A stretch of 64,000 nucleotides of DNA from positions 1,178,001 to 1,242,000 of the forward strand of contig NZ_CP133267.1 of assembly GCF_030915465.1 (NCBI RefSeq), given 5' to 3'. The translations under genes and the position numbers were made by a program. The first letter of the stretch is position 1. Every line of letters begins with the position of its first letter. Under the pieces are notes generated by a model. That model searched no databases. It worked only from the letters and a program-made list of their open reading frames with translations, and had not been told where the DNA came from. This DNA is from Neobacillus sp. PS3-34 (lineage in GTDB: Bacteria > Bacillota > Bacilli > Bacillales > Cytobacillaceae). Below are positions 1 through 37,140 of this stretch, one piece after another.

Positions 1-1372
1 TCCCCAATAAATGCCCCAATTCCGATACGAGCATATTGTTTTTACCCGCTGATAGTTCCGAACTAATGATGTTTCCATAAGAAATAATTGCACCGGAAGA
101 AGTAATCGATGCCGTATTCACCGTTTTGTGAACGGTAATATCTCCTTCTGCTTCAACCACCATTCTTTCCTCTATTTCGCCAGTGATTTCGACATCGCCT
201 ATAAAACGAATATTTCCAGATTTTAAATTAACATCCCCGAAGTGCCTTAGCTTTGGAATGATGGAAGCTTTAACAAGCTGTCCTCTTTGTTCAATTTTAG
301 GACGACCTGGTTCTGTTGCGACAATTTTCCCGTCTGCAACCGCTACTCCTTTACCCGCCTTGATTACTAATGGCAACGTCTGCTTGGCAGGAATCGGTTC
401 ATTCGTAACAGTGTAGCCGATTTGACCTGGTGTAGGAGGATGGACAATTGCAATGACCTTTCCTCTTTCAGCTTTTGGAATGGTTTTGATTTCTCGAAAA
501 TCCACACGTCCATCCTCTTTTTCCCTCGGTCCTTCTTCTATCTCTGTTGCCACTTTAATTTCAATCCATCCGTCCTTGCCTTGTTTTGGTTTCATCCCAG
601 TAGCAATTTCAAAAGTGGTTGGTTCAGAAGCCTCCATTGCTTTGAGAATTTCATCTTGGTTAAAGCCGTGTATTACTCTTAAATCTTCCAGTTTTTTCAT
701 GACATCTGCATAATTAAGGACGTTATGAATCTCTTTCTTTTCTTCAACAATTATTTCGATATGATGGTCAGCGTTAATATCTGGCACACTTCTAATAATT
801 TTATAACCAGGCTCTACATATAATCGTACCTTTAACTTTTGTTCATCAATCGATACTTTCCAACCCGTTTCTTTTTCCTCGTTTTCTACTTTAATTTCAT
901 AAATGTCCTTTTCCGATAGGATTGCCGTTTTTTCTTTAACCATCTCATTGTTTCTGTAGAGCTTTATTCCTCTATTAATGGTTACCATTGGGAAATGCGT
1001 CGGGGAAGATTTGCAAAATAACTGTCCGTCTTTGATCCAAACTTTCCCTGCAAGTTCATCAGGGTAAATTTTACTTAAAGTATCTAGTTTAGGTGGATCG
1101 AGAATAATAGGGGAAGCATTTATTTCCGCTTCCTCTTTTTTAATTATCATGTCGAGAAGCTGAGATTCCAAATCACCAGTACTAAAAGTAATCGGAGCAT
1201 GCTCGCTTTTTGTAAGCTTAACAATAGCTTGCTTTGATCTAATCCCTAAAAAACCTTTCTCATCATGCTGCATTATTTCAATATTTACTTTTTCTTTTGT
1301 TGTCTCCAATATTTCCAGACCAAGACTAATAGCTTCATTAATATCTTTACCTTTTGAAACGATACTTTGCAT
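1..1372 (-). CDS. FapA/DUF342 protein with Jag-N-like N-terminus (partial)
   Basis: The reading frame is open from the ATG at 1372 to the window edge, so the C-terminus is missing. The first ~50 residues (MQSIVSKGKDINEAIS..., then GFLGIRSKQAIVKL) resemble the Jag-N domain found in KhpB/Jag and FapA proteins. From about residue 150 the protein matches the DUF342/FapA type, ending in the window with the start of a beta-helical repeat region (NIRFIGDVEITGEIEE). A strong GGAGGA ribosome site lies upstream, 12 bp after the phosphatase stop. FapA-family proteins are linked to flagella or polar localisation in other bacteria; the role here is unknown. It is the last visible gene of the c-di-GMP-riboswitch operon. 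Confidence 0.8.
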   Translation of the reverse strand, partial: MQSIVSKGKDINEAISLGLEILETTKEKVNIEIMQHDEKGFLGIRSKQAIVKLTKSEHAPITFSTGDLESQLLDMIIKKEEAEINASPIILDPPKLDTLSKIYPDELAGKVWIKDGQLFCKSSPTHFPMVTINRGIKLYRNNEMVKEKTAILSEKDIYEIKVENEEKETGWKVSIDEQKLKVRLYVEPGYKIIRSVPDINADHHIEIIVEEKKEIHNVLNYADVMKKLEDLRVIHGFNQDEILKAMEASEPTTFEIATGMKPKQGKDGWIEIKVATEIEEGPREKEDGRVDFREIKTIPKAERGKVIAIVHPPTPGQIGYTVTNEPIPAKQTLPLVIKAGKGVAVADGKIVATEPGRPKIEQRGQLVKASIIPKLRHFGDVNLKSGNIRFIGDVEITGEIEERMVVEAEGDITVHKTVNTASITSSGAIISYGNIISSELSAGKNNMLVSELGHLLG

Positions 1373-1384
1373 AACTCTATCCTC

Positions 1385-2236
1385 CTATCCCAATACCGGA
1401 GAATTTAGACTTGTAATATCGGCTTTTTGTTCAGTCACTTTTAAAAGAACCATCGTTATATCATCCTTTTGAGGGACACCTTCCGTGAACTGCTTTACTG
1501 AATCCATCACACATTTCTCAATTTCTCCAACACCCAATTCTTTGTTATCTAATAACGTTTGAATCAGGCGCCCTAATTTATACTGTTCTCCCTCTTTATT
1601 TTGCGCCTCTATAATTCCATCTGTATAAAAAAATATCGTATCCAGCTCTTGGAGTTTTACCGCTTCTTCTTTATAAACCTGATTTGGAAGCCCGCCTACC
1701 ATAATCCCCTTTACTTTAGGAAGTTCCTCAACGGATTTGCTTTTCCCCTTAATGAAGAGCGGTAGATTATGCCCTGCATTTGAATAAGTAAAAATCCCAG
1801 TCTGTGGATCCCAATCGGCACAAAATAGAGTAACAAAGGATTTTAAAGTTCTTAAATCATCGTAGATAGCCTGGTTCATGGCAGTTAAAGTTTCACCTGG
1901 CCCTTGAGTACTCTCTGCCGCACTTCGAAATGCTCCTCTCGTCAAAATCATAAGCATGGCAGCGGGAATCCCTTTCCCCATTACGTCACCAATCACAATA
2001 CGAATCTTTCCATTTACTAATGGATAAAAGTCATAGTAATCACCGCCAATTAACCTTGCAGGAAGGGAGGCCCCAGACACTTCTCCTCCTTCAAAGGTAG
2101 GGGTTTTACCATTTAACAAAGACGATTGAATATTCCTGGCTAAATTAATTTCACGTTGTAACGTTTTATCCATCATCTTTTGATCATCAGAAGCCGTTTT
2201 AGAAAATTGATAGGTGAGACTGTCATGGTACATCAA
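1385..2236 (-). CDS. PP2C-type (SpoIIE/RsbU-like) serine phosphatase
   Basis: This 283-residue protein is almost entirely a SpoIIE-type PP2C phosphatase domain. The metal-binding motifs are visible in order: IGGDYYDF, IGDVMGKG, FYTDGIIEA and QKDDITMVLL. Proteins of this family dephosphorylate STAS-domain anti-anti-sigma factors. Its start overlaps the stop of the STAS gene by 4 bp, which supports translational coupling and a direct enzyme-substrate pairing. No sensor domain is fused to it, so its input probably comes from another operon product such as the HAMP transducer. The start could instead be the next ATG, one codon in. Confidence 0.9.
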   Translation of the reverse strand: MMYHDSLTYQFSKTASDDQKMMDKTLQREINLARNIQSSLLNGKTPTFEGGEVSGASLPARLIGGDYYDFYPLVNGKIRIVIGDVMGKGIPAAMLMILTRGAFRSAAESTQGPGETLTAMNQAIYDDLRTLKSFVTLFCADWDPQTGIFTYSNAGHNLPLFIKGKSKSVEELPKVKGIMVGGLPNQVYKEEAVKLQELDTIFFYTDGIIEAQNKEGEQYKLGRLIQTLLDNKELGVGEIEKCVMDSVKQFTEGVPQKDDITMVLLKVTEQKADITSLNSPVLG

Positions 2237-2550
2237 ACAACCTCCTCTTGGATGGCATTCAATATCTGATATAAACCGACTGTCTCAAATACCTGGTGAG
2301 TTAGTTCATCAATCCCTTGAAGCTTTAAGGTGAAATTTTTCTCCTGAGTTAAATAGATCGCATTAATAATGGATCCAATCCCTGTCGAATCGATAAATTC
2401 CAATTCACTAAAATCCAAGACTAATATATTAATATCTCCAAGATCATCTAGATAGGGATCTATTACACTACTGGTAGAAATATCTAAGATTCCTTTAAGC
2501 GTGAATATTGTCGTCCCACCTTGAACGTCTTTTCTAACGGTTAAACTCAT
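2233..2550 (-). CDS. STAS-domain anti-sigma factor antagonist
   Basis: This 105-residue single STAS domain resembles RsbV/SpoIIAA. The conserved phosphorylatable serine is in FIDSTGIGSI, around residue 55. In partner switching a HATPase kinase phosphorylates this serine and a PP2C enzyme removes the phosphate. I chose the ATG at 2550 because a GGGAGGGA ribosome site lies just upstream; the longer open frame would run into the preceding gene. The gene sits between the transducer and the PP2C phosphatase. No sigma factor is encoded in this window, so the final target is unknown. Confidence 0.92.
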   Translation of the reverse strand: MSLTVRKDVQGGTTIFTLKGILDISTSSVIDPYLDDLGDINILVLDFSELEFIDSTGIGSIINAIYLTQEKNFTLKLQGIDELTHQVFETVGLYQILNAIQEEVV

Positions 2551-2566
2551 ATTGTTCCCTCCCTGC

Positions 2567-4135
2567 TTAAAGCTTAAATTTACCCATTTGTTCAAGTAAT
2601 GTATTGGATATCTCCGACAACTCACTTGACTGTTCATGCAACGATTTAAGTAAATCAGATAGGGTAATGGTTATTTCGGTTGTGGCATGTGTACGATATT
2701 GTGCCATTTCTCTCATATATTCTAATTGTTTCAGTATTTCCTGGACCTTTTCATTATGATTATTTGGTTGCAGAACCTGTCCAAGATCATCTAAAAACTC
2801 CATAATTTCGAATAATTGATCTCTTGCCAAAATGGTCGTTGTAGTAGAAAGATCATACATCCTTTCCACTGATTGCGATGCTTCTGCTTCCAATAACATA
2901 GAAAGCTTTTGTGTCTTAGTAGCTTGTTCTTGCGTATCCTTGACAAGATTATTCAGTTTGTCTACCATCCGATTCGTACTTTTAGAGAGCTTATCTAATT
3001 CACTACCATCATCAACCTTACTTTTTGCAGTTAAATCCCCGTCTTCTAATAATTTAATTTGACAAATAATCTTTTGGATATTTTCATAGATTTGATTAAA
3101 AAAACCGCCGTTAACAAGAAAAGGGCAATAAGAGAAACAAGTCCGGAAACAATTAATATAATAGAATGCCTATAAAGGGGCCACTCATTTTCCCATAATC
3201 TAAAGCCAAATAGATTACTCGATTTTCATCAAGAGGGAGAAACATTTTATATATTTTTTTCCCCTTTATGTCCTCAATAAAAGTTGCCTTTTTTATCGTG
3301 GGCATGGTTAGTAACATATTAAATTTGTCCGTTTCCAATTGAAAACTTCCAGCTTCAATCTTTTGTAGGGGAGGATATAACTTTTTTTCCAGCGATGGAT
3401 CTCTAAAAACTCTAGGATTTAACACTGCAATTTCTTTTACAATATTATTTTCTTTAACTAATTTATTAATGATTGTGTTGGCCCTGCTGTCTCTAAATAG
3501 TTATAAACCTCATTAGCTTCAATGTAGGGATTGATAATATAGTTTGTATTGGGAACATGATAATAAACATACTTAAAGAAAGCTGGCTTATCTTTATGTG
3601 AAGCAGATTGGGCGGTAGGAAGGACAACTAAATTTCTATCTGTAAAAGTTGCGCCTGGCAGGTCAGGTTTCTCGGTTTGAAGCAATACTTTACCAATTTC
3701 ATAGAAGCCTGCTTTCTTGAAACTAAAGCCAATTTCTTCCTTTTCTGTCGCTGCAAAACCTACAATATCGTCTTTGGACTTTGATTCAGCAAAAACAGTA
3801 ATTCCTGCTAATCCTAATTCTTTTTTAATTTTTTTGAGATCATCATTTGTAATTTCGTTCCTTTTTTTATCCTTTATCAAATCGGCAATATGTTTAGAAT
3901 AAGAAACTAATTTTAGGTCTATTTGATGTTCGATCGTTTTCGTTGCTAAGTCGGTTTCATTTATTCCACTTAATACATTACTTGCTACTGCATCTGCTTG
4001 TTGATATGTTTGCCTTTCTATCTGCCTTTTCATTAAATAAAGCTGAACAGCACCCGAACAAACAGCGATTGCTAATAAAATTGTAAGTATTTTTACAAGA
4101 AATTGTTTACGCAGTGTAAGATTATTCGTCATCAT
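2567..4135 (-). CDS. Membrane HAMP-domain transducer (three frameshifts)
   Basis: A membrane sensor of about 523 residues, broken into three pieces in the given sequence. Restoring one base at each of three homopolymers (a G run near 3476, an A run near 3190, a T run near 3095) gives one continuous frame. The order is: N-terminal membrane segment (~12-32), an extracytoplasmic sensor region of ~250 residues, a second membrane segment (IILIVSGLVSLIALFLL), a HAMP-like linker (KLLEDGDLTAKSKVDD) and a C-terminal coiled-coil region. It lacks the hairpin signalling motif of chemoreceptors. Its place directly before the STAS and PP2C genes suggests it feeds the partner switch. The three indels look like sequencing errors. 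Confidence 0.75.
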
Positions 4136-4155
4136 ATCTATTGCCCTCGCTTAAA

Positions 4156-5226
4156 TCAAAAATCATCGGAAAACCATTTTAAAGATATTTTCCGAATTTC
4201 ATCTAATTTGTTATTGCAACAATGCCCTTCTTCCTTGTATTCATGCAATGTTTTTTCGGTTGATAGTTGCTGAAATAATTCATACATTTCATCATTAGTC
4301 ACCATCATATCTTTGTTTCCATGAAAGACTAAAATAGGACATTGATAATGAATTGTTTTAAAGTCTGGAATCGTTTTTTGATCTGGCCCTAAGTCACAGG
4401 CAATACTCATTCTTTTTTCGAAATAGTGAGGCATATTCATCTTATTTAGTGCAACTGCAGGACTAACCGCTACCGCTTTCTTTACTTCTGGATGGCTGCT
4501 GCCCAGCAGAACCCAAGTTGCCCCTAAACTTGTCCCAAATAAATAAATCGGGAGCTGTGGGAACCTCTCTCTAGAATAATTAATTACCTTCATGATAAAA
4601 GTTTCCCATCTTGTCCCCGAACCAATTAATCCGTTTAATGTGTATGTCTCCCCTTGCCCTGGTCCATCAAAACTAAGTGTGACATAACCATTTTCCAGAA
4701 ATTCCATCTCGTATATAAACAACTCTTCTTTAGAGGAATCAATTGGGTTAATAATCAAGATACATCCTTTTGGTTCAGAAGGAATGCGAATTCTTCCCGC
4801 ACAAGGAATTCCATCAATGGATATAGATTCATATTCTGTGTTAAATTCAGAAAGTGAGTCAGCTATGTACATATATTTCAAACATTGATGATACCATTGT
4901 TGTTTTTCAATTGATCTCTCCGGATAAATCCAATAATTGAGATTATAATAGAGGGATGCTTGACGATATAAATATTCCGACCTATTAACTAAACCATTTT
5001 TTCCACAGAAAGAAGCTTTTTCCACCTTTTCCTCCGCCAGTGTTTCCCAGGATTGAAGCCATCCTTCGAGATTTTTTAAATGTGGCTTAACTGGCGTTAA
5101 ATCATCTGAGTCAATCCCATGAACGACCCATCTTTCCCAAAATAGATCAATTAGTTGTGCTGTTTTCAATGTTCTATGAATTGTTTTGGTTATTGTGTCT
5201 TGAATTGGCACTTCCAATTTGGTCAT
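4156..5226 (-). CDS. Alpha/beta hydrolase
   Basis: A 356-residue alpha/beta hydrolase fold protein. The nucleophile elbow is GTSLGA, the acid is probably in FHGNKDMMV and the histidine in EEGHCC. A long N-terminal helical region (~110 residues) comes before the catalytic core, as in FrsA-like and 2,6-dihydroxypseudooxynicotine-hydrolase-like enzymes. The substrate cannot be told from sequence. In B. subtilis the hydrolase RsbQ works with the PP2C phosphatase RsbP to sense energy stress, so a hydrolase in an operon with PP2C and STAS genes may make or recognise a signal rather than act in catabolism. That link is inference. Confidence 0.82.
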   Translation of the reverse strand: MTKLEVPIQDTITKTIHRTLKTAQLIDLFWERWVVHGIDSDDLTPVKPHLKNLEGWLQSWETLAEEKVEKASFCGKNGLVNRSEYLYRQASLYYNLNYWIYPERSIEKQQWYHQCLKYMYIADSLSEFNTEYESISIDGIPCAGRIRIPSEPKGCILIINPIDSSKEELFIYEMEFLENGYVTLSFDGPGQGETYTLNGLIGSGTRWETFIMKVINYSRERFPQLPIYLFGTSLGATWVLLGSSHPEVKKAVAVSPAVALNKMNMPHYFEKRMSIACDLGPDQKTIPDFKTIHYQCPILVFHGNKDMMVTNDEMYELFQQLSTEKTLHEYKEEGHCCNNKLDEIRKISLKWFSDDF

Positions 5227-5299
5227 CTCTTTTCTTATTTAAATGAAGTTATGATTTTTTAATTACTTAAGCCAAGTCCATATCCTAACCCTTAGAAAT

Positions 5300-6156
5300 T
5301 TATTTTTGATCCTTCTCCAGACTTGATTCAAAAGTTAGAATAATAGTCGATCCTTTAGGGGAAGTACATAATAAAACTTGTTTGGCCATTTTCATCATTA
5401 AAGTAAAGCCCTGGCCCATTGATTTTTTGGTGGAATACCCTTCCAATAAAGTGGTCTTAGGCAATTCCTGCAGGCAAAATCCCGCCCTCTATCTTCTATT
5501 ACAAAACGAATTTCACTATTTTGTTCGCTTTCTACTAACGTCATTTTTCCTTCTTCAGCGTGTTTAATCGTATTCGTAATTGCTTCGGACAAAACCAGCA
5601 GCCAGCTCATCACCTTCGTTTTATTGAAGCCCTTCAGCTCAAGACACTCCCTGGCAAGGTTACGGCATGCCGGTATATCAGAACGTTCTTTGATGATCCC
5701 TTCACAAAACACATTTCCTACTTTATATTTACTGGCTTCTATTTCTGAAATTAGTAAAAATCGGCCTTGTGTGGCAGCAAACATAACATCTCGATATACT
5801 TCCCACTTGCTTTGTTCTTGTTGAAATGGATCCTGGTTATCTTTTTTGAGAGATTGTGGCTGCCGTAAAAATAATTCCTTCTCATATGTGTGATATGCCT
5901 TTAACATCGAGTTTTGTAAATTATTTTTAATATTTAAACTGTTAATTTGATTAACAATATCCAATTGTTGTTCATTCCATTTCAGCATTAGCTCACTTAA
6001 ATGGAGTACAAACTCGATTTGATTTTCATCATTTGAATGAATAAATGATAGCTGAGTTAAGGATTGGTAGAACAATGTATCCCCTTCTGTAATGGTTAAA
6101 CCAAGATATTGGCTTATCTCTCTTGCAAGAAAACCTCTTCTAATTTTTATTCTCAT
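5300..6156 (-). CDS. HATPase-domain regulator, anti-sigma/serine-kinase-like (frameshifted)
   Basis: The C-terminal half is a GHKL ATPase domain: N box LSEAITNTIKHAEEGKM, then IEDRGRDF. The frame is then lost by one missing base in a C run near 5474. After correction it continues LQELPKTTLLEGYS and KSMGQGFTLMMK, completing the ATP lid, and stops at 5300. The N-terminal ~150 residues are helical and unrecognised. The 6156 start has no ribosome site. An AAGGAGG near 6235 and an overlapping frame suggest the true start is upstream with another indel. It is the likely kinase of the operon's partner switch, acting opposite the PP2C enzyme on the STAS protein. Confidence 0.72.
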
Positions 6157-6260
6157 TTCAGAATAAGATAAATCCGAAGGGAGGGACGGAAGTTGGTGCG
6201 AGTGGATTCAGAAAAATTTTTAAAAAAATTGAAGAACCGTCTCAACTCAATTTTGCCTCC

Positions 6261-6974
6261 TTACAAAATTCCTAGTGGCGGCATGATCGTTATTTCATCT
6301 ACATATGCCCCCGATGGTTGGTTAATCAGGTATAGCAAGTGCTTGGCCAACGTTTCCACTGGAATCATGTTTGACCTATGCGGTGCTGGCTCGATCCCGT
6401 CCCAGAAACTGCTGCTAACAGCACCGGGTACAACGGATGTAACTTGCACACCTGTTTGGCGAAGCTCAGCTTGTAATACTTTTGTAAGTCCCATTACTCC
6501 AGATTTTGAAGCCGAATATCCTCCACACCCTGGTAAAGCGGTTGTACCAGCAATCGACACCAAATTTAAGATATGCCCTTTTTTTCTTTCTACCATATGC
6601 CTTCCAAAATATTTGCAAGCAAGATACGTTCCGCGTAAATTAACGGCAATCATCCGATCAAAATCCTCAGTGGAGGAATCGATAACACTGGAAAAAGCTC
6701 CAACTCCAGCACTGTTAATAAGTACATCAATGGTTCCGAAGTGCTGTATAGCTTGTTCATAAAAAGCCTTTACGGACTCTTCAACGGTTACATCTAATGG
6801 TAATTCCAAAACATTTCCAATTAATTTCTTTTTATTGCCGCGTGCTCCTAAAACTAGATTTCCACCATAATTCTTTACCAGAGAGGCGATTTCCCTTCCA
6901 ATTCCTCTGCTTGACCCTGTAATGGCAATGGTTTTTCCACTTAGTAACAAATTTTCTTCCATTACTTTACTCAT
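6261..6974 (-). CDS. Short-chain dehydrogenase/reductase, sepiapterin-reductase-like role
   Basis: A classical SDR of 237 residues. It shows the NAD(P)-binding TGSSRGIGRE, the NSAG motif, a serine in NLVSIAG and the catalytic YSASK. The ATG overlaps the end of the PTPS gene by 8 bp, so the two are translationally coupled. SDRs have many substrates. The assignment as a pterin reductase rests on its position after folE and PTPS genes, because the same three enzyme types make tetrahydrobiopterin in animals and some bacteria. FabG-like or 3-ketoacyl reductase activity cannot be excluded from sequence alone. Confidence 0.85.
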   Translation of the reverse strand: MSKVMEENLLLSGKTIAITGSSRGIGREIASLVKNYGGNLVLGARGNKKKLIGNVLELPLDVTVEESVKAFYEQAIQHFGTIDVLINSAGVGAFSSVIDSSTEDFDRMIAVNLRGTYLACKYFGRHMVERKKGHILNLVSIAGTTALPGCGGYSASKSGVMGLTKVLQAELRQTGVQVTSVVPGAVSSSFWDGIEPAPHRSNMIPVETLAKHLLYLINQPSGAYVDEITIMPPLGIL

Positions 6975-7785
6975 TTTCTGGACCCAAATATTCGAAATAG
7001 TTCTTCTCCGTTTCGAATAAGCCAACCTTGAATAACTTAGGGAGTTTCGGCTCCAGTAAGTCCCAAATGACAACAGCCACGTTTTCAGAAGTTGGATTTA
7101 AATCTTTAAATTCTTCCGTATCGAGATTCAAATGCTTATGATCAAATTTCTGCATAATCTCCTGGTCAACGATTCGATCGATATCTGAAAGATTATCAAT
7201 CATCCCTGTTACAGGGTCAGGATTTCCGCTTACTGTTACCTCTAAATAGTAGTTATGCCCATGGCCGAATGGATTGTTGCATTTTCCGAAAATGGCAATG
7301 TTTTCTTCATTGCTAAGATGCTCGCTATGTAAACGGTGTGCTGTACAAAAATGATATTTTCTCGTTAATCGAACCATTGATGATCTCTCCTTCTCTGAAT
7401 ATAAGGAATCATTTTCTCTCAAACGGATTTTATGAAGATGACAGTTATCAATCTTTCCATCTATTGAATTCCAGATAAAAGTCGTGATATTTTCCGTTGT
7501 TGGGATATTCTTTTTGAAATAATCATTTTCCTTATTCAAAAATTTTCCATCTAATTCCTTTTGAACAAATTCTTTCACTACTTTATCGATATCGGTAATA
7601 TTCACCACAATGCCCGAGCTACGGTCGAGTTTTCCTTTTACCAAGACTTCCAGCGTATAATCGTGTCCGTGGCCATTTGAATTGCTACAAGCACCAAAAG
7701 CCTGCTTATTTTGTTCATCATCCCATTCATCAATTCGATAGGAATGCGCCGCTGAAAAGTACATTTTTCTTGAAAGATAGAGCAT
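6967..7785 (-). CDS. Tandem-domain 6-pyruvoyl-tetrahydropterin synthase
   Basis: 272 residues holding two consecutive PTPS/QueD-fold domains (about 1-130 and 137-272). The second is canonical: zinc histidines in TAHRLH and GHGHNY, catalytic cysteine in FGKCNNP, and Asp-His in FDHKHLN, strikingly like animal PTPS. The first keeps zinc ligands H14, H39 and H41 and Cys33 but has LDGKFLN, so the catalytic His is Gly80. Single-domain PTPS/QueD is usually ~120-150 residues. Neither queE nor queC is nearby, which argues against preQ0 synthesis. Gene order folE-PTPS-SDR suggests tetrahydropterin production. An AGGGGGA ribosome site supports the start. Confidence 0.93.
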   Translation of the reverse strand: MLYLSRKMYFSAAHSYRIDEWDDEQNKQAFGACSNSNGHGHDYTLEVLVKGKLDRSSGIVVNITDIDKVVKEFVQKELDGKFLNKENDYFKKNIPTTENITTFIWNSIDGKIDNCHLHKIRLRENDSLYSEKERSSMVRLTRKYHFCTAHRLHSEHLSNEENIAIFGKCNNPFGHGHNYYLEVTVSGNPDPVTGMIDNLSDIDRIVDQEIMQKFDHKHLNLDTEEFKDLNPTSENVAVVIWDLLEPKLPKLFKVGLFETEKNYFEYLGPENE

Positions 7786-7799
7786 AGATTTTCCCCCTA

Positions 7800-8369
7800 T
7801 TAATCTCTTAAGAGTGCTCGTTCAAATTCTTCCGCCAACGAGACAGTCTCCTTAAATGCACATTTTTTAATGGTAGTCACTGTAGAACTGCCTGGCTTTT
7901 TTACCCCTCTGGCACACATGCAAAGGTGCTGCCCTTCAACACTGACAATCACACCCTCTGGCTGAAGAACGTTCATGACTGCGTCAGCGATTTGCTGTGT
8001 CATTCTTTCCTGGACCTGCGGGCGCTGAGATACAAGCTCGACCAAACGGGCAAATTTGCTCAATCCTACAACTCTTCCATTCGGAATATAGCCAATATGG
8101 GCTTTTCCAAAGAATGGGATAAGATGGTGTTCGCAAAATGTATAATAATTAATATCTTTAACAACAACCATTCCCTCGTACTCTTCCGCAAATGTAGTGG
8201 TAAGAGCGGTTTCTGGATCAACACCCACTCCTGCAAATACTTCTCTGTACATTTTTGCTACTCGTTTTGGTGTATCCAGTAGTCCTTCCCTATCAGGATC
8301 TTCACCAATTAAATGTAAAATTCCACGTATATGTTCTTCTAATAATCCACTTTTCATTTCAACAGCCAT
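7800..8369 (-). CDS. folE: GTP cyclohydrolase I
   Basis: 189 residues, complete GTP cyclohydrolase I (type IA). The zinc and active-site motifs are FCEHHLIPFFGKAH and QHLCMCARGVKKPG, with SQRPQVQERMT between them. It converts GTP to 7,8-dihydroneopterin triphosphate, the entry step to folate and biopterin. Other folate genes are absent and a PTPS follows 14 bp downstream, so this is probably a specialised second copy for pterin synthesis. It is the first gene of the long operon and lies directly behind a c-di-GMP riboswitch and a terminator, so its transcription should depend on c-di-GMP. Confidence 0.96.
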   Translation of the reverse strand: MAVEMKSGLLEEHIRGILHLIGEDPDREGLLDTPKRVAKMYREVFAGVGVDPETALTTTFAEEYEGMVVVKDINYYTFCEHHLIPFFGKAHIGYIPNGRVVGLSKFARLVELVSQRPQVQERMTQQIADAVMNVLQPEGVIVSVEGQHLCMCARGVKKPGSSTVTTIKKCAFKETVSLAEEFERALLRD

Positions 8370-8400
8370 TTCAATGCCCCCGTAAAAATTATTCTGAAAA

Positions 8401-8429
8401 CAAAAAAGCTCACCAATAGATTGGTGAGC
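8401..8429 (-). terminator. Riboswitch-associated intrinsic terminator
   Basis: On the minus strand GCTCACCAAT and ATTGGTGAGC form a perfect stem followed by a T6 tract. It lies between the GEMM-I aptamer and the folE start and is the likely expression platform. Confidence 0.85.
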
Positions 8430-8481
8430 ACAATAAATACAGCTTCATAGACCTAATGGACTATTAAACTCTATTTATATT

Positions 8482-8585
8482 TTCCAACCCTTTTCGGTAA
8501 CCCGGCGATCATAGCTATTTCTAGCCTTAGACCCGTAGCTTTGCGTCCTTATCTTTCAATAAGTTTGCCATTATCGAAGGAATAT
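8482..8585 (-). promoter_or_regulatory. Cyclic-di-GMP-I (GEMM-I) riboswitch before folE operon
   Basis: The minus strand shows the GEMM-I hallmarks in order. There is a P2 hairpin closed by a GAAA tetraloop (CUUAUUGAAAGAUAAG), then the conserved GGACGCAAAGC, then GGGUCUAAGG leading into P3, and finally GCCGGGUUACCG, the tetraloop receptor side. P1 can form from flanking sequence. A terminator follows before folE. The combination indicates c-di-GMP-controlled transcription of the pterin/partner-switching operon. Whether ligand turns it on or off cannot be settled by eye. Confidence 0.9.
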
Positions 8586-8984: not shown

Positions 8985-9839
8985 CTATTTTATCTTTTTA
9001 TATAATTTTTGATTTTCCGATATGTTTTCAAAGCGGTCACTAAATTTAGTATAAGAAATAGTTTCCTTATCACCAAGTCCAATAATGCCGAACATACCTA
9101 AGCTTTGGTAGAAAAGATCATGTACCTTCTCTTGTAATGTCTTATTAAAATAGATTAATACATTTCTACATAAAATAACATTAAACTCGTTAAATGACCC
9201 ATCTGTTACTAAATTATGCTGGGCAAATACTACATTTTTTAAAAGGTATGGGTGAAATTTGACCCTGCTATTTTCGGCATAGTAATAGTCCGAAAATGCG
9301 TTTTTTCCACCCGATTTGATGTAATTATTGGTATAATTTTTCATATTATCAAGAGGATACACCCCAGATTTCGCTATTTTTAACACATCTGCGTTTATGT
9401 CTGTAGCGTAAATCTTTGTCTTGTCGTAGACCCCTTCCTCTTGCAGTAAAATGGCCATTGAATACACTTCTTCCCCTGTGGAGCAGCCAGCATGCCAAAT
9501 ACGTATCGATGGATATGTACGCAATAATGGTACAACCTTTTCTCGAAAAGCTGCAAAAAACAATGGGTCCCGGAACATTTCAGTAACATTAATCGAAAAA
9601 TCAGCAATAAGCCTTTTTAAACATGAGGAATCATGTAAAATCTTTTCCTGAAGCCCAGTGATAGTTGATAATCTTTCTGCATGGACTCTATGCCAAATTC
9701 GTCTTTTTATCGAATTAAAGGCATAACTCCTGTAATCATAGCCGCACCATGCATACAACGCTTCTAATAATAGATTAATTTCTATTTTCTCAAGATCTTC
9801 ATTGTATGAATAAGGTAAATTATCATTCACCAGGCTCAC
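8985..9839 (-). CDS. CheR-type protein-glutamate O-methyltransferase
   Basis: 284 residues with both CheR domains. The N-terminal helical domain carries NVTEMFRDP. The SAM-binding domain has [17 protein letters not shown] and CRNVLIYFN. CheR methylates glutamates on chemoreceptors using S-adenosylmethionine. Its ATG overlaps the stop of the hybrid kinase by 4 bp and no chemoreceptor or CheB is nearby, so it probably modifies the operon's sensor kinase or its coiled coil rather than serving flagellar chemotaxis. The assignment of family is firm; the substrate is inferred. Confidence 0.92.
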
Positions 9840-12800
9840 CTACCCACTTTATCTGGATGCAGCCATACCTGCAACAAAGACGTGAGTTGATCAGGATTAA
9901 CCGGCTTAATAATATAATCAGATGCACCTGCCTCCATGCATCTCTCCCTGTCTTCCCTCATTGCTTTTGCTGTTAAAGCTATGATTGGAAGGTTGGTGAA
10001 TTTCGGTATTTCCCTTAGTCTCCGAATCGTTTCATATCCATCCATCTCTGGCATCATAATATCCATTAGAACGAGGTCAAAATCCGAAACCTCTTCAAGC
10101 AATTTAAGGCCTTCCAGCCATTTTCGGCAAATTGAACGATCATGCCATTCATTTCAAGCACGTTAGATAATGCATATACATTTCTGACATCATCATCCAC
10201 AAGAAGAACTTTTCTTCCTTTGAGACCACTAACATCTGTAATTTGTATATCCTCTTCTGTATCAAAATTTTGCAGGTCACTCCCAGAATTTAAGTACAAG
10301 CCCAGCTCATCCATTAACCTTTGCGGAGAATGTGAATCTTTAATAATAATTGTATGAGCGTGCTTTTTTAACTGTATCTCCTCTTTCAATGTTAAGTCAC
10401 GGCCTGTATAGATAAATATATCCAACTTTTCATTGAAAGGATTGGACATAATCTTGTCCAACAGTTCAAATCCATTCGTATCCGAAAGGCCTAAATCAAG
10501 GAGCATGAAATCAAATTGGCTAACCTTTAATTCTTCCAGTGCCTCAGCACCCGTCGAAACTGCCTTAATAATGACGTTCTTCTCTCCAATTAGCTCCATT
10601 AAGCTATTGCGCTGATTTCGATCATCATCCACGATTAAGAGCCGCTTGATGCCATAATTAGTTTCAAGGGAGGAGGACTGACTTTGTTCGATTATTAATT
10701 CTTCACTTAACTTTTTGTTTACTTTAGTCTCCAAAGAAACGGCAGCTTCGCCCAAGACTGGATAAATATCCTTGACTTCTTCCGATTCCTTATTGTCTCT
10801 TACAATAAAGGTAAAAGCACTTCCATTCCCCTCTTCACTTTCCACAAAAATTTCTCCACCGAGAAGAGATGCAATCTGGCGGCAAATGGACAATCCTAGC
10901 CCAGTTCCTCCATACTTCCGGCTCGTTGTGCCATCTGCCTGTTGGAAGGCTTCAAAAATGAGCTCCTGTTTCTCTTTAGGTATTCCTATTCCAGTATCAA
11001 TAATGGAAAAAGCCATCGCAGAACCGATGTTTGAATTATTAACAGAACCAATTTCCAAAGTGACTTTCCCTTGGGTAGTAAACTTAAATGCATTGGATAA
11101 AAGATTTTGCAGGACCTGCTGTAAGCGCTGAACATCACTGTTAAGCTGACTTGAAACGCCATCTTTTAATACAATGTTAAAGTCAATATTCTTTTCAGAT
11201 GCTATAGGTTTAAAACTTTTTTCCGCAAACTTCACTAAATCTTCTATATTAATCTGGCTTATATTGACTTCCATCTTGCCTGACTCGATTTTGGCTAAAT
11301 CCAGTATATCGTTTATAATAGTTAACAAATCACACCCGGAAGAATAAATGGTTCTTGAAAACTCGATTTGCTTATCTGATAGATTTCCATCATGGTTATC
11401 GGAAAGCAATTTCGACAAAATCAATAAACTATTTAATGGTGTCCGTAATTCGTGTGACATATTCGCGAGGAATTCTGATTTATATTTTGAATTCAGTGTA
11501 AGCTGTTTTGCTTTTTCCTCTAGTTCTGCGCGGGCTCTTTCCACTTCTTTGTTTGTAGCTTCAAATTTTTTATTTTGAATTTCCAAGATTTCTGCCTTTT
11601 CCCGTAACTCAAAATTGGTTTGTTCCAATTCCTCTTGTTGAAATTGCAGTTTTTCCTCGGACTGTCTGAGTGCTTGCGCTTGTACCTCCAATTCCTCATT
11701 TGTAGCTCTAAGCTCTTCCTGCTGTGATTGCAGCTCTTCTGACTGTGCCTGCAGTTCCTCCATTAAAACCTGGGATTCTTCTAATAGCTTTGCTAATTGA
11801 ATTCTTCCCATAGTACTATCCAGGATAATTCCCAGATTATTGACCAACTCCTCCAAAAGGTTTTGCTGATTCGTGTTAAAACGGACAAACGAAGCAAATT
11901 CAATTACTGCTATTACATCTCCTTTAAAGATTACTGGAAGCACATAAACATTCAGGGGAGTTCCTTGTCCCAAGCCAGATTTTATCCGAATATAGTCGGA
12001 AGGAACATCTGTAAGGAGAATAGGTGTTTTTTCAAGCGCCGCTTGACCAACAATGCCTTCCCCTAAATTAAACTGATTGGACAGGTGTTTCCTTTCCTTG
12101 AATGCATAAGAAGAAAGCAATTTAAAAACGGGCTCATTTTTCTGCTCATCTGCCTCTTTAATATAGAAAGCTGCTTGACATGCCTCCACTAAAGGAACAA
12201 CAACGGATAGGAATGTTTGAGAAATAGATTCTAATTCATGCATACCGCTCAAATCAGTTGTGATCTTAGCAATATTTGAATTGGCCTACGCCTGCTCTTC
12301 ATTTGCTTTGCTAAGGTTTTGTTCCTTAATCATCTGTTCCTCTAACGATTCCGCCATATAGTTGAAGGAGCGCCCAACCTCATCAATCTCATCATTCGAT
12401 TTAACTTCGATTCTCGTTTGCAAATCTGAACTTCCATTTGCGACATTACTCATAACATGTGACATTTTATTAAGTCTATTCGCGATGGTCCATACAGTTC
12501 TAAATAAATAGCCAACACCAATAATAATTCCAAGCAAAGAAAAAATGGTGCTTAAAGACATCTTCCACTGGAAATCGTTTTTCATCACGCTTAATGAGGA
12601 ATTCATATTCATTTCAAAAGTATCAGTTATCCTAGAAATAATGCTGAAAAATTCCTCCTGCATTTGATATCCATTAGTCATTACGATATTTTTGGCTTTG
12701 TCCTTATTTCCCGCATCTATTTGCTTCGTTACATCATTAATATAGTCATTAAATTTATCGTTTCGATCTTTTAAATCCTTTACGATAAGATTCTGTTCGG

Positions 12801-13110
12801 TGCTATTGACCAACGTTTCAAGAGAACGAATATCTTTTTTGACAGCAGCTCGTTCTTTTTCGATAGAGTCTAAATCTTTTTGAATCAAATCCTGATTACT
12901 AAAGGCAACGATATTCCTGAGGCTTATGGATTCGTCCTTCACTTCCCTCTGGATTTTAAAGGAAAGGGACGCTGTATCATAATTATGTTTTAGAAGATTA
13001 GCGTTATTATTTAAGCTAAATAACTGGTACCATCCGATGCCAATCAGAAAAAGGCAAAGAAGAATTAACATACTAAGTCCAAGTAGTAACTTAGTTTTTA
13101 TTTTCATCAT
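9836..13110 (-). CDS. Hybrid sensor histidine kinase with two receiver domains (disrupted)
   Basis: One kinase of ~1090 residues shown as three frames. Order: TM1 (~8-28), helical sensor, TM2 (~185-207), HAMP, GAF (~300-430), a long Gln/Glu-rich coiled coil, HisKA with SHELRTPLN (His ~554), HATPase with [11 protein letters not shown], then two receivers ([11 protein letters not shown] and [11 protein letters not shown]). An in-frame TAG at codon 275 replaces an expected tryptophan; it lies in the same frame as the downstream part, so it is a substitution. A missing C near 10110 shifts the last receiver. It sits between the GGDEF-EAL gene and cheR and is probably the partner of the N-terminal REC of the former. 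Confidence 0.85.
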
Positions 13111-13171
13111 TTGTGCTCCTATTCCGGGGAAAATCCCTAAAATTGATATCTAACTAGAACATGAGTATTCT

Positions 13172-15697
13172 TTACTGAATTAAAAGGTTTTGGCTTTCTT
13201 CTATGCATGTTTGATAGATGATGGCCATTGCCTGGAGACGATCTGAAACATTTAATTTTTGTAAAATACGAGTAATATGATTCTTCACTGTATGTTCACT
13301 AATAAATAACTTTTCTGAGATCTCTTTATTACTTAGACCATCGATGATTAACTTAAAAACCTCCATTTCTCGGGAAGAAATAGCGTACAAATCTTTTGTG
13401 CGTGAAAGTGCCCCATTAAGGATTTCCTGTTTTTGATCTGGATTCTCAATCTTTTTATCAAGACTATTCGGATTATTTACCCCATTAGGAAATGACTCTT
13501 TTTTAAGTGGTCCTTGTTGATCTGGCCTATTTAACATAAAAAGTTCGAATTCCTTTTCTGGAACAGGACGACAGATTAAATAACCTTGAATCTCCTTGCA
13601 ATGATGCGTTTTTAAAATTCCTAATTGTTCTTCCGTTTCAACACCTTCAGCAATGACCGACATATTTAAACTGTTGCCTATTGACAGTATCGTTGATACT
13701 AACGCGATGCTGTCAGGAGAATTGATTGAAATGTCTTGAATGAAAGACTTATCAATCTTTAACGTATGGACCGGCAGTTTCCTTAAATAGCTTAAGGAAG
13801 AATAGCCCGTCCCAAAGTCATCGATACTGATGGTAACTCCCATCTTTCTAATATCGTTTAAAACATTTATGATTCTTTCCTCGTTTTCCATTAACGTTGA
13901 TTCTGTTATTTCAATCTCTAACATTTTTGCACTAATACCAGTTTCACTTAAGATCGTTCTTATTTTATCTGTTAAATCCTTTTGTAAAAATTGCCTTGGT
14001 GAGAAATTTACAGCAAGACGGATTGGCGTTAATCCAATTTCCTGCCAGGTTTTAATTTGTTTACACGCAGCTTTTAAGACCCACTCGCCCATTTCGACAA
14101 TTTGCGCTGTCTCCTCAGCCAATGGAATGAATTCAGATGGTAATACGACTCCCCAATCCGGGTGGTTCCAACGTAATAAAACCTCAGCACTTGTAATGCT
14201 TCCTGTCTCAAGTTCAATTCTCGGTTGAAAGTAAAGAGTCAACTCATTGCCCTCAATTGCTTTTCTCAATTCGTTTTGCAGGATAAAGGATTTATATGAA
14301 TGAATATTCATACCAGAATGAAAAAATTTGAGCATGTTTTTGCCCTGCTCTTTTGCCCGGTATAATGCGGCATCAGCATTCTTAATTAATACAAATGCAT
14401 CCTCACCATCATACGGAAAAATACTGATTCCAATGCTTGTTGTAATAAATAATTCGTATTTATCAATGATAAATGGAATCTTAAAACCGTCCAAAACCTT
14501 CTCCGCAATCTCAATTGCACTCTCTCTATTTGTGTCGGGTAATATAATATTGAATTCATCTCCGCCTACTCTTGCAATCAAATCATTAGCACGCACATAT
14601 TCTTTCAATCTCTTTGACACTCCTTGAAGAAGCCTGTCCCCGATAACATGTCCAAGAGAATCATTTACAAATTTAAATCTGTCCATATCCAGATACAAAA
14701 TAGCTAATGGTTTATTTTGCTCTTTTGCATGTTTTAATTCCAAATTTAACTGATCGTTAAATAGCCGTCTATTAGGTAAGTTGGTTAGGCCATCATGATA
14801 GGCCATATGTGTTATTAATTCCTTATCCTGCTTTTTTTTCGTAACATCCCGAATGGTACAAGCGACAATGCACTTATTTTTAACATACTTTTTTCCGACT
14901 TGAAGATCTGCGAAAAATAATGTCCCATCTTTCCGCTTAACTTTAACTTCTTTTAAAATGGAGTTACCCATTATATCTTCCATATTATTTAAAGCTTCAA
15001 AAATATGTTTTACATGCTGCCTAGATTGTTCATTAGAAAAAAGCAGGTATATACTTTCACCCAATATTTCCTTTTTCGCAAATTGGAACATCTTCTCAAA
15101 AGCAGGGTTAATATTTAGAATGATTCCTTTGCTATCCATAATAATCATTGAATCGATAGAGGTTTCACTTATGACCTTTGCTAATGCTTCTGATTCACGC
15201 AATTTGGCAGTTTTATAGGAAAGTTCTTTATTTGCTGTCTCCAGCTCTTTTGTTTTCTCTATTAAAATATCTGTTTGATGAAGATTTTTTTTGTTGATTT
15301 TATACATTTTCACAAAAATTTCAATCTTGGCCTTTAAAATAAAGGGATCAAATGGCTTTAGAATATAATCGATAGCTCCTACAGAATAGCCTGTAAAAAT
15401 ATGTTTTGAGTCTATATTATTAGCTGTAATAAAAATAATAGGAATGTTTTTTGTCCTCTCCCGTGCTTTTATTATTTTGGCCGTTTCAAAGCCGTCCACT
15501 CCTGGCATTTGGACATCCATTAGGATGACAGCAAATTCATATTTTAATAAATGAATCAAAGCTTCCTCACCCGAAAATGCTTTAATAAGATTGTAATCAC
15601 TTCGCTCAATGATAGCCTCTAAAGCTAATAAATTTTCAGGACGATCATCTACAATCAATATGTTAACTCTTTCATTATCATTATCATGATCAATCAT
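13172..15697 (-). CDS. REC-PAS-GGDEF-EAL-LuxR response regulator for c-di-GMP
   Basis: 841 intact residues. Domains in order: receiver (1-130, phosphoacceptor Asp61 in LMDVQMPG), coiled coil, PAS (~165-290), GGDEF (RVGGDEF with an I-site RAND five residues before it), EAL (EVLLRW, NFSPRQF, ITES, DDFGTGYSS, KIDKSFI, AEGVET) and a C-terminal LuxR-type helix-turn-helix (SREMEVFKLI ... SNKEISEKLFISEHTVKNH). All catalytic motifs for both c-di-GMP synthesis and breakdown are present, EVL being a common EAL variant. A DNA-binding tail on such a protein is unusual. Its own mRNA carries a GEMM-I riboswitch, so product feedback is likely. Confidence 0.95.
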   Translation of the reverse strand: MIDHDNDNERVNILIVDDRPENLLALEAIIERSDYNLIKAFSGEEALIHLLKYEFAVILMDVQMPGVDGFETAKIIKARERTKNIPIIFITANNIDSKHIFTGYSVGAIDYILKPFDPFILKAKIEIFVKMYKINKKNLHQTDILIEKTKELETANKELSYKTAKLRESEALAKVISETSIDSMIIMDSKGIILNINPAFEKMFQFAKKEILGESIYLLFSNEQSRQHVKHIFEALNNMEDIMGNSILKEVKVKRKDGTLFFADLQVGKKYVKNKCIVACTIRDVTKKKQDKELITHMAYHDGLTNLPNRRLFNDQLNLELKHAKEQNKPLAILYLDMDRFKFVNDSLGHVIGDRLLQGVSKRLKEYVRANDLIARVGGDEFNIILPDTNRESAIEIAEKVLDGFKIPFIIDKYELFITTSIGISIFPYDGEDAFVLIKNADAALYRAKEQGKNMLKFFHSGMNIHSYKSFILQNELRKAIEGNELTLYFQPRIELETGSITSAEVLLRWNHPDWGVVLPSEFIPLAEETAQIVEMGEWVLKAACKQIKTWQEIGLTPIRLAVNFSPRQFLQKDLTDKIRTILSETGISAKMLEIEITESTLMENEERIINVLNDIRKMGVTISIDDFGTGYSSLSYLRKLPVHTLKIDKSFIQDISINSPDSIALVSTILSIGNSLNMSVIAEGVETEEQLGILKTHHCKEIQGYLICRPVPEKEFELFMLNRPDQQGPLKKESFPNGVNNPNSLDKKIENPDQKQEILNGALSRTKDLYAISSREMEVFKLIIDGLSNKEISEKLFISEHTVKNHITRILQKLNVSDRLQAMAIIYQTCIEESQNLLIQ

Positions 15698-37010: not shown

Positions 37011-37124
37011 TAAATGAAAAGGAAAAGTGTAGGGCTATATAGCGCTAAGGCTTTTCTCTATAAATACGAACAAAGGGGATGGGAGAAATCTTTCACGGTC
37101 AAACAAAGGGGTATATGTTTGGTT

Positions 37125-37140
37125 TGTGATCAACTTCACG
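37125..37140. promoter_or_regulatory. Crp/Fnr-like box 1
   Basis: TGTGA-N6-TCACG, one base off the Bacillus Fnr consensus TGTGA-N6-TCACA, upstream of the small membrane protein at 37274. Confidence 0.45.

What the first reader, a model, noticed from the sequence alone, without database searches (positions are those of the whole stretch)
1..8585. c-di-GMP riboswitch gates an operon joining tetrahydropterin synthesis to a partner-switching module
Seen: a GEMM-I aptamer and terminator directly before folE, then tandem PTPS, SDR, HATPase, alpha/beta hydrolase, HAMP transducer, STAS, PP2C and FapA genes, all on one strand with short gaps or overlaps. Known: folE, PTPS and a reductase make tetrahydropterins; GHKL kinase, STAS and PP2C form partner switches; in Agrobacterium a pterin (PruA/PruR) controls the c-di-GMP enzyme DcpA. 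Inference: c-di-GMP controls production of a pterin that is sensed by, or modifies, this signalling module. I know of no described system with this combination.
Basis: partly seen in the sequence, partly recalled or inferred. Interest (0 to 1): 0.88.

Follow-up and report, generated by a model that had tools for sequence, protein, structure and literature searches.

The report
Riboswitch-gated pterin signalling operon in bacilli
In many Bacilli one operon, usually headed by an RNA element of the c-di-GMP riboswitch family, carries both genes predicted to make a biopterin-like molecule and a receptor-kinase-phosphatase relay that would likely read that molecule, which, if confirmed, would give Gram-positive bacteria a dedicated pterin signalling circuit.

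Summary
A c-di-GMP-I aptamer (92.7 bits, cut-off 35) and a terminator precede folE. The tandem PTPS is one fused gene. The terminator scan finds no intergenic terminator between the pterin and signalling genes. The operon runs past the window into a second STAS gene and two GGDEF genes.

It is a conserved locus, not chance. Of 39 distinct tandem-PTPS loci found, 31 also carry SDR, SpoIIAB-like kinase, dCache-HAMP receptor and a PP2C; SDR and kinase are adjacent in 30 of 30 fetched loci; 25 of 31 have the riboswitch. In the other 8 a GGDEF-EAL gene adjoins the synthase; 6 of these carry the same receptor domain.

In 15 loci with the kinase but without pterin genes the receptor is full length in 3, against 31 of 31 pterin loci. 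So the receptor, more than the rest of the relay, tracks the pterin genes. Against this, the same domain also sits in many orphan GGDEF-EAL proteins away from folE and PTPS.

Most likely a self-contained circuit: c-di-GMP gates synthesis of a biopterin-type molecule, perhaps a conjugate where carrier protein and ligase are present (19 of 31), read by the receptor and passed to the partner switch. Ligand, riboswitch direction and output are inferred.

The parts
8493..8579 (-). c-di-GMP-I (GEMM-I) riboswitch aptamer
   Evidence: Rfam RF01051 92.7 bits, cut-off 35; best of 15 in the genome; an aptamer heads 25 of 31 homologous operons, each above its Rfam cut-off
8484..8490 (-). GGGTTGG segment just 3' of the aptamer, complementary to 8418-8424 in the terminator 5' arm; candidate antiterminator strand
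   Evidence: complementarity above shuffles in 22 leaders (0 of 300 shuffles as high) but not above swapped leaders, so no covariation proof
8408..8429 (-). intrinsic-terminator-like hairpin with T-tract between aptamer and folE
   Evidence: a hairpin of this kind in 22 of 22 leaders examined
7800..8369 (-). folE, GTP cyclohydrolase I (189 aa)
   Evidence: Pfam PF01227 242.6 bits
6967..7785 (-). fused tandem 6-pyruvoyl-tetrahydropterin synthase (272 aa); domain 2 has the full catalytic set, domain 1 has lost the dyad His
   Evidence: Pfam PF01242, two stretches; domain 2 closest in the PDB to 3i2b and 1b66; residue counts over 38 homologues
6261..6971 (-). short-chain dehydrogenase/reductase, candidate sepiapterin-reductase-like step
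   Evidence: Pfam PF00106 156.4 bits; adjacent to PTPS in 30 of 30 fetched operons
5320..6245 (-). SpoIIAB/RsbW-type HATPase (switch kinase) with a helical N-terminal part; reading frame shifted near both ends in this assembly
   Evidence: intact about 319 aa in relatives; fold search of the L040 model
4156..5226 (-). alpha/beta hydrolase (356 aa)
   Evidence: Pfam PF12146 57.7 bits; the L040 homologue is closest in the PDB to 2,6-dihydroxy-pseudo-oxynicotine hydrolase, then AntI and a yellowish-green-1-like protein; present in 30 of 31 operons
2567..4135 (-). membrane receptor: dCache-like extracytoplasmic domain, HAMP, output coil; split into three frames in this assembly
   Evidence: one ORF of 521-559 aa in the 30 other operons; AlphaFold model of the L040 homologue pLDDT 88
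2233..2550 (-). STAS anti-sigma-antagonist-like switch protein
   Evidence: Pfam PF01740 46.3 bits
1385..2233 (-). SpoIIE/RsbU-type PP2C phosphatase
   Evidence: Pfam PF07228 167.8 bits
1..1372 (-). FapA-like protein (Jag_N, FapA_N, FapA); 5' part, the gene ends 698 bases beyond the window
   Evidence: L056

Best explanation
This is one operon, found at 31 loci of Bacilli and headed by a c-di-GMP-I-family riboswitch aptamer at 25 of them, that is predicted to make a biopterin-type tetrahydropterin and likely passes it, as an extracellular signal, to the dCache-HAMP receptor and partner switch encoded by the same operon. Steps. (1) Shown: aptamer, terminator and gene order; inferred: one transcript, and c-di-GMP controls read-through, more likely as an OFF switch, because the segment that could form the antiterminator follows directly on the last aptamer strand. 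(2) Predicted from sequence: FolE makes dihydroneopterin triphosphate, PTPS domain 2 makes 6-pyruvoyl-tetrahydropterin, and the SDR reduces it to a tetrahydrobiopterin-like compound. (3) Inferred: in 19 of 31 operons a carrier protein, an AMP-forming ligase and the hydrolase add or trim an acyl group; the window's own operon keeps only the hydrolase. (4) Inferred: the product leaves the cell and binds the membrane-distal dCache lobe. (5) Inferred from family knowledge: the HAMP coil biases the kinase (HATPase) against the PP2C phosphatase, setting the phosphorylation of the STAS proteins. (6) Inferred: the STAS proteins act on c-di-GMP enzymes, such as the two GGDEF proteins encoded just downstream, closing a loop back to the riboswitch.
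For: Unit: of 39 distinct tandem-PTPS loci, 31 have PTPS, SDR, HATPase, receptor and PP2C on one strand (each 31/31), folE, hydrolase and FapA 30/31, STAS 29/31. SDR and HATPase lie within 400 bp in 30 of 30 fetched operons, median gap 13 bp, and HATPase and hydrolase in 28 of 29, so biosynthesis and signalling genes are interleaved. Riboswitch above its Rfam cut-off in 25 of 31; terminator in 22 of 22 leaders examined. Enzyme type: PTPS matches 6-pyruvoyl synthases 3i2b and 1b66 at E 1.5e-39 and 4.4e-39 against 1.6e-7 for the best 6-carboxy-tetrahydropterin synthase; domain 2 has the first His, Cys, HGH histidines, Asp-His dyad and C-terminal Glu at 38 of 38. Receptor link: full-length receptor in 31 of 31 pterin loci (the window's own in pieces) but 3 of 15 loci that keep the kinase without pterin genes; those 15 need at least 4 separate changes on the kinase tree. 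Second context: in 8 of 8 other tandem-PTPS loci a GGDEF-EAL gene is the immediate same-strand neighbour, and in 6 of these it carries the same receptor domain, E 3e-45 to 1e-53 among the ORFs of the fetched loci. Fold: the top Foldseek match of the receptor model is the periplasmic domain of Chlamydia RsbU, E 1.5e-6. Not for known cofactor users: Biopterin_H in 5 and NO synthase in 16 of 36 tandem-PTPS genomes, 18 have neither.
Against: The receptor domain is not private to pterin loci: 47 of 193 family genomes have it, only 8 of them with tandem PTPS. Of 18 such stretches outside the operon that I fetched, 16 hold an intact orphan sensor-GGDEF-EAL-type protein, one a broken one and one a 619-aa protein; none has a folE or PTPS match nearby, six have a distant SDR match. 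One pterin-minus locus (L095) keeps a 49% identical receptor and two keep a 25% one. Four of the 31 (L086, L087, L088, L090) have PP2C, FapA and STAS genes only 27-36% identical to the reference and placed upstream of folE, so the partner-switch half is not the same set everywhere. The 15 pterin-minus kinases are 36-59% identical to L040, and some may be paralogues. 6 of 31 operons lack a visible riboswitch, and 5 of 15 pterin-minus modules have one (3 of these also by Rfam), so it may belong to the module rather than to the pterin genes. None of the 8 type B loci has one directly upstream. The swapped-leader test shows no covariation for the proposed antiterminator, and the 5' extension pairing is not above shuffles (38 of 300 as high), so ON or OFF is unproven. 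The top structural match is modest (TM 0.40); many Cache domains match about as well. Two genes are frame-shifted in the window itself. No pterin exporter was identified (none was searched for).
Confidence: 0.48

Rival explanations
1. The operon makes a secreted pterin natural product (antioxidant, metal binder or antibiotic-like), and the receptor-partner-switch module regulates its making in response to some other ligand; the pterin is an output, not the signal.
For: Carrier protein plus AMP-forming ligase in 19 of 31 operons and a hydrolase related to AntI and a yellowish-green-1-like enzyme look like secondary metabolism. Pepteridines are a known carrier-protein-dependent pterin product (PMC5384830, abstract and two sections). 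The receptor domain occurs without tandem PTPS in many genomes.
Against: The receptor is the part most often lost or altered when the pterin genes are absent, while kinase, FapA and mostly PP2C stay; type B loci place the synthase next to a GGDEF-EAL gene, 6 of 8 with the same receptor, without kinase, STAS or PP2C.
Confidence: 0.25
2. The operon supplies tetrahydrobiopterin as an ordinary cofactor for an enzyme elsewhere in the cell, under c-di-GMP and stress control.
For: FolE, 6-pyruvoyl-type PTPS and SDR are the classical cofactor pathway. The window's genome has a Biopterin_H protein at G000:C1:1820905-1821714, and 16 of 36 tandem-PTPS genomes have NO synthase.
Against: 18 of 36 genomes have neither enzyme; the kinase gene lies between SDR and hydrolase in nearly all fetched operons, which a housekeeping cofactor does not need.
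Confidence: 0.15
3. Two independently acting c-di-GMP-regulated gene sets are merely stacked in one transcript, with no pterin-to-switch signalling.
For: The switch kinase and partners exist without pterin genes in 15 loci, 5 of them with the riboswitch. Such stacking can arise by shared regulation.
Against: Tight interleaving of SDR, kinase and hydrolase, the repeated receptor loss, and the type B loci.
Confidence: 0.12

Closest known systems
PruA-PruR-DcpA pterin control of c-di-GMP in Agrobacterium (review PMC13259868: abstract and section 9 read)
   Same: A dedicated pterin pathway tied to c-di-GMP turnover; extracytoplasmic sensing; type B loci pair tandem PTPS with a GGDEF-EAL protein.
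   Different: There a pteridine reductase makes a tetrahydropterin (thought to be a monapterin derivative) and a separate periplasmic protein PruR binds it. Here the pathway is biopterin-type, no PruR-like domain was seen in the operon, the candidate receptor is a dCache domain, the output in type A is a partner switch, and a c-di-GMP riboswitch usually heads the operon.
RsbQ-RsbP sensing module of Bacillus subtilis and relatives (PMC3183031: abstract and outline read)
   Same: An alpha/beta hydrolase encoded next to a sensor with interchangeable outputs (phosphatase, histidine kinase, diguanylate cyclase); here hydrolase and receptor sit in one operon, and the receptor is seen with a switch, with histidine kinases (P0165, P0183) and with GGDEF-EAL.
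   Different: RsbP senses with a PAS domain fused to its phosphatase; here the receptor is extracytoplasmic, the phosphatase is a separate protein without PAS, the hydrolase is nearest to 2,6-dihydroxy-pseudo-oxynicotine hydrolase, and a complete pterin pathway is present.
SiaABCD of Pseudomonas aeruginosa (PMC7647112: abstract and outline read)
   Same: A PP2C against a kinase setting the phosphorylation of a switch protein in a pathway with a diguanylate cyclase; SiaB is among the fold matches of the kinase.
   Different: SiaA carries its sensor and phosphatase in one protein (recalled); here receptor and phosphatase are separate genes, the switch proteins are STAS, and there is a pterin pathway and usually a riboswitch.
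Pepteridine cluster of Photorhabdus luminescens (PMC5384830: abstract and the sections on locus and biosynthesis read)
   Same: FolE- and PTPS-type genes with a carrier protein; [quoted passage not shown]
   Different: That cluster uses a thiolation-condensation-dehydrogenase E2 fusion; here a discrete carrier protein and AMP-forming ligase (absent in the window), no condensation domain seen, and receptor and kinase genes inside the operon.
Chlamydia trachomatis RsbU (6MAB; title seen)
   Same: Best Foldseek match of the receptor domain; periplasmic domain of a partner-switch phosphatase.
   Different: There sensor and phosphatase belong to one protein (recalled); here they are two genes.

Membership tests
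c-di-GMP-I riboswitch (RF01051) | aptamer above the Rfam gathering score | tested here: met
   92.7 bits against 35; 25 of 31 homologous operons at or above the cut-off of RF01051 or RF03167
c-di-GMP-I riboswitch (RF01051) | expression platform next to the aptamer | tested here: met
   terminator-like hairpin at 8429-8408 and in 22 of 22 leaders examined; competing antiterminator only suggested
c-di-GMP-I riboswitch (RF01051) | binds c-di-GMP and changes transcription | not testable with these tools
   needs in-line probing and reporter assay
6-pyruvoyl-tetrahydropterin synthase, biopterin type (PTPS-I) | C-x5-HGH, zinc histidines, Asp-His dyad and C-terminal Glu in the active domain (motif definition recalled) | tested here: met
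   domain 2: first His, Cys, both HGH His, Asp, dyad His and C-terminal Glu each at 38 of 38; domain 1 keeps Cys (37 of 38) and the histidines but has Gly for the dyad His in 37 of 38
canonical partner switch (kinase, STAS, PP2C) | SpoIIAB/RsbW-like kinase fold with N-box | tested here: met
   fold matches 1tid, 1til, 6m36 of the L040 model; N-box and DxGxG patterns in 30 of 30; the window's own copy is frame-shifted
canonical partner switch (kinase, STAS, PP2C) | STAS protein with a Ser/Thr in the D-x-x-G loop | tested here: met
   18 DSTG and 7 DFSG of 28 first STAS proteins, the other 3 lack it or no motif was found; 26 of 26 second STAS proteins
canonical partner switch (kinase, STAS, PP2C) | PP2C phosphatase with metal-binding Asp motifs (patterns recalled) | tested here: met
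   four motif patterns in 27, 30, 26 and 29 of 30
canonical partner switch (kinase, STAS, PP2C) | phosphotransfer between the proteins | not testable with these tools
   biochemistry needed
PruR-DcpA | PruR-like pterin-binding protein encoded in the operon | tested here: not met
   no such domain in the Pfam scans of the operon proteins and neighbours; the rest of the genome was not searched
RsbQ-RsbP | PAS-coiled-coil-PP2C partner of the hydrolase | tested here: not met
   the PP2C gene has only the SpoIIE domain
RsbQ-RsbP | hydrolase orthologous to RsbQ | tested here: inconclusive
   five PDB matches of the L040 hydrolase at E 1e-3, none named RsbQ; sequence only
SiaABCD | sensor and PP2C in one protein (recalled) | tested here: not met
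   receptor and PP2C are separate genes in the 31 operons
dCache sensor | long N-terminal helix and Cache/PAS-like lobes | tested here: met
pepteridine-type NRPS-pteridine hybrid | carrier protein fused to condensation and dehydrogenase E2 domains | tested here: not met
   discrete carrier protein of about 80 aa and ANL ligase; both absent in the window's operon

The most novel reading that the evidence does not exclude
Bacilli possess a dedicated pterin hormone system: a biopterin-type molecule, often a carrier-protein-made conjugate, is synthesised from an operon gated by a c-di-GMP riboswitch, released, and read by a new class of pterin-binding dCache receptor that is plugged either into a partner switch or directly into a GGDEF-EAL enzyme, so that c-di-GMP and the pterin control each other in a closed loop.
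Probability: 0.38. Interest if true: 0.92.

Novelty: new variant of a known kind. Interest (0 to 1): 0.78.

Why it matters
Pterins as bacterial signals are documented, in the review seen here, for Agrobacterium with similar genes in other Proteobacteria. This locus would extend the idea to Gram-positive bacteria through a different synthase, a different receptor and a different output, and tie it to c-di-GMP at the level of transcription. It gives three directly testable predictions (riboswitch response, a defined pterin product, a purified receptor domain that binds it) and a candidate ligand class for a dCache-like domain without a Pfam match that also sits in orphan GGDEF-EAL proteins of many genomes of the family. 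It would also offer a natural case of a metabolite pathway that co-travels with its receptor while the relay behind it is reused.

Tried and rejected
Receptor as a private pterin sensor: first suggested by locus L057, then weakened by the family-wide search, which found the domain in 47 of 193 genomes, mostly in orphan GGDEF-EAL-type proteins in the stretches fetched. I kept the weaker claim (receptor tracks the pterin genes within this operon family).

Covariation of P1 and antiterminator: tested on 22 leaders; both pairings are no better than swapped leaders, so no structural proof is claimed. Minimum-energy folding contains the terminator in 17 of 22 leaders by my count (not in L040, L048, L061, L062, L071) and does not settle ON or OFF.

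Pterin for NO synthase or aromatic hydroxylase: rejected as a general explanation, 18 of 36 genomes have neither.

Pseudogene reading of the window's receptor and kinase: not adopted, because the neighbouring kinase gene and another conserved gene of the genome are split too, which suggests assembly indels; not proven.

Operon split by promoters: the promoter scan found 54 sites against 55.6 expected by chance, so it says nothing.

Literature: the searches listed no paper that describes this combination; two searches returned none, only PMC7288161, whose passages concern GTP cyclohydrolase III, only papers on cyanobacteria (listing seen). The library lacks most subscription papers and all preprints.

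Full report
WHAT WAS CHECKED. The aptamer is real: Rfam c-di-GMP-I at 8493-8579 on the minus strand, 92.7 bits, the best-scoring of 15 in the genome. A terminator-like hairpin lies between it and folE (8429-8408). Pfam finds folE, a single gene with two PTPS domains, SDR, HATPase and HAMP (both weak in the window's broken copies, clear in L040), alpha/beta hydrolase, STAS, SpoIIE-type PP2C and Jag_N-FapA. On this strand the terminator-like sites between folE and base 1 fall inside the SDR and FapA genes, none between genes. A terminator-like site at 8966-8943 follows the upstream CheR gene. Beyond the window the operon continues with the end of FapA, a second STAS protein, a 1220-aa PAS-GGDEF-EAL-PAS-histidine-kinase protein and a 570-aa PAS-GGDEF protein.

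BROKEN FRAMES. In this assembly the receptor gene is split into three frames and the HATPase is shifted near both ends. In relatives they are single ORFs of about 522 and 319 aa. The neighbouring GAF-histidine kinase gene, one 1095-aa ORF with its HAMP and receiver parts in L042, is also split here. I treat these as probable assembly indels.

HOW COMMON IS THE ARRANGEMENT. The tandem PTPS was found in 14 named loci, 8 of 193 family genomes, 22 of 397 order genomes and 9 of 398 class genomes (the samples overlap and the order and class samples are drawn from larger groups). I hold the surroundings of every one. They fall into two kinds. Type A, 31 loci, in the usual order: folE, PTPS, SDR, HATPase, hydrolase, [carrier protein, AMP-forming ligase], receptor, STAS, PP2C, FapA, second STAS. 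Presence on the PTPS strand within 12.5 kb: PTPS, SDR, HATPase, receptor and PP2C 31/31; folE, hydrolase and FapA 30/31; STAS 29/31; second STAS 27/31; carrier protein and ligase 19/31 (L042 lacks FapA only because the stretch ends there, its duplicate L063 has it). The window, L039, L040 and L043 are among the 12 without carrier protein and ligase. Departures: in L086, L087, L088 and L090 the PP2C, FapA and STAS genes are only 27-36% identical to the reference and lie upstream of folE; L041 and L064 have another order; L042 has a TRAP-type transporter and L041 a DNA methylase inserted. Median gaps are 14, -1, 13 and -14 bp along folE-PTPS-SDR-HATPase-hydrolase; SDR and HATPase lie within 400 bp in 30 of 30, HATPase and hydrolase in 28 of 29 (the window itself not counted). 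Type B, 8 loci (L051, L058, L072, L074, L080, L083, L084, L091): the immediate same-strand neighbour of PTPS is a GGDEF-EAL gene in 8 of 8. Genomes G503 (L049, L083) and G383 (L039, L084) have both kinds.

RIBOSWITCH. 25 of 31 type A loci have it: directly before folE in 22, before PTPS in L078 (no folE there), and in L088 and L090 before the STAS-PP2C-FapA-STAS genes that precede folE (for the fetched loci, for the window). All 25 reach the Rfam cut-off of c-di-GMP-I or, in L040, L062 and L087, of its GGC variant. Missing: L047, L052, L064, L065, L077, L086; in L064 the operon head may lie outside the stretch, in L047, L052 and L065 an EAL-like gene lies directly upstream of folE. None of the 8 type B loci has one directly upstream. 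Kinase modules without pterin genes have it in 5 of 15 (own model; L093, L095 and L105 also by Rfam). 22 of 22 leaders examined have a terminator hairpin (L087, L088 and L090 were not examined). The segment directly after the aptamer is complementary to the terminator 5' arm: mean score 13.3 against 10.2 (sd 0.46) for shuffled segments, 0 of 300 as high, but swapped leaders do as well, and the 5' extension pairing is not above shuffles (38 of 300 as high). So complementarity is conserved without covariation. An OFF switch is the more likely reading but is inference.

WHAT THE PTERIN WOULD BE. The PTPS protein, through domain 2, matches the 6-pyruvoyl synthases 3i2b and 1b66 (mammalian, recalled) at E 1.5e-39 and 4.4e-39, and 6-carboxy-tetrahydropterin synthases at best at 1.6e-7. 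In domain 2 the first His, Cys, the HGH pair, Asp-His and C-terminal Glu are invariant in 38 of 38 homologues; domain 1 has Gly in place of the dyad His in 37 of 38 and may bind rather than turn over. With folE and an SDR this predicts a tetrahydrobiopterin-type product. The hydrolase of L040 is closest to 2,6-dihydroxy-pseudo-oxynicotine hydrolase, then AntI and a yellowish-green-1-like protein; that the latter act on polyketides is recalled. Together with the carrier protein (serine motif pattern in 17 of 19) and the ANL ligase this suggests acyl conjugation in 19 operons. Known biopterin users do not explain it: Biopterin_H in 5 of 36, NO synthase in 16 of 36, neither in 18 of 36 (the 36 handles are all tandem-PTPS genomes).

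AGAINST. The receptor domain is found in 47 of 193 family genomes, 8 of them with tandem PTPS. I fetched 18 such stretches outside the operon: 16 hold an intact orphan protein of 841-867 aa with a GGDEF-EAL match, one a broken copy (the window's genome), one a 619-aa protein; none has a folE or PTPS match, six have a distant SDR match. So the ligand could be a common pterin, or something else. Of 16 positions conserved in both pterin-linked groups, one (Ser175 of L040) is Ala in most orphans; this was noticed after the fact.

KINASE. The L040 HATPase model (pLDDT 86.6, pTM 0.56) matches SpoIIAB (1tid, TM by target 0.78), RsbW and SiaB. Its N-terminal helical part was not searched separately.

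COMPARISON AND NOVELTY. The pieces resemble PruA-PruR-DcpA (PMC13259868, abstract and section 9), RsbQ-RsbP (PMC3183031, abstract and outline), SiaABCD (PMC7647112, abstract and outline) and pepteridine synthesis (PMC5384830, abstract and two sections), but membership fails for each on a defining feature. The searches showed no description of this operon; subscription papers are mostly not covered. I rate it a new variant of a known kind (partner-switch and pterin/c-di-GMP signalling) with an unusual, well-conserved combination.

Noticed in passing
window 15803-15887 (-), with genes 8985-15697: A second c-di-GMP-I aptamer (46.8 bits) followed by a terminator-like hairpin (15791-15760) heads an upstream gene row: REC-PAS-GGDEF-EAL-LuxR protein, 4HB-HAMP, GAF-histidine kinase-receiver and CheR genes, with a terminator-like site at 8966-8943 after CheR.
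   Followed up: partly
window 2567-4135, 5320-6245, 9836-13110: Several conserved genes are split by frame shifts in this assembly while intact in relatives; probably an indel-rich assembly.
   Followed up: partly
L106-L123; G000:C1:1699703-1700600: An orphan sensor-GGDEF-EAL-type protein of about 845 aa with the same receptor domain is widespread in the family; the window's genome has a broken copy.
   Followed up: partly
L061 (G031:C3): The operon lies on a 137716-base contig; a receptor and a PTPS from a contig of that length are labelled Bacillus methanolicus plasmid, so it may be plasmid-borne there.
   Followed up: no
L039:8454-8756: A 100-aa ORF between a GGDEF-EAL gene and the riboswitch is 59% identical over 54 residues to the middle of the switch kinase: a kinase fragment or paralogue.
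   Followed up: no
L064: Two hydrolase genes and a second ligase (cut by the stretch end) in one extended gene row, as if the biosynthetic part were duplicated.
   Followed up: no
P0165, P0183: Two histidine kinases (Bacillus taeanensis, Halalkalibacter flavus) carry the same receptor domain; whether tandem PTPS genes lie near was not checked.
   Followed up: no
G000:C1:1820905-1821714: A Biopterin_H protein (aromatic amino acid hydroxylase family) in a 585-aa frame of the window's genome.
   Followed up: no
window 52344-52581 and 37022-37139: T-box leader and an RsaE/RoxS small RNA above their Rfam cut-offs.
   Followed up: no
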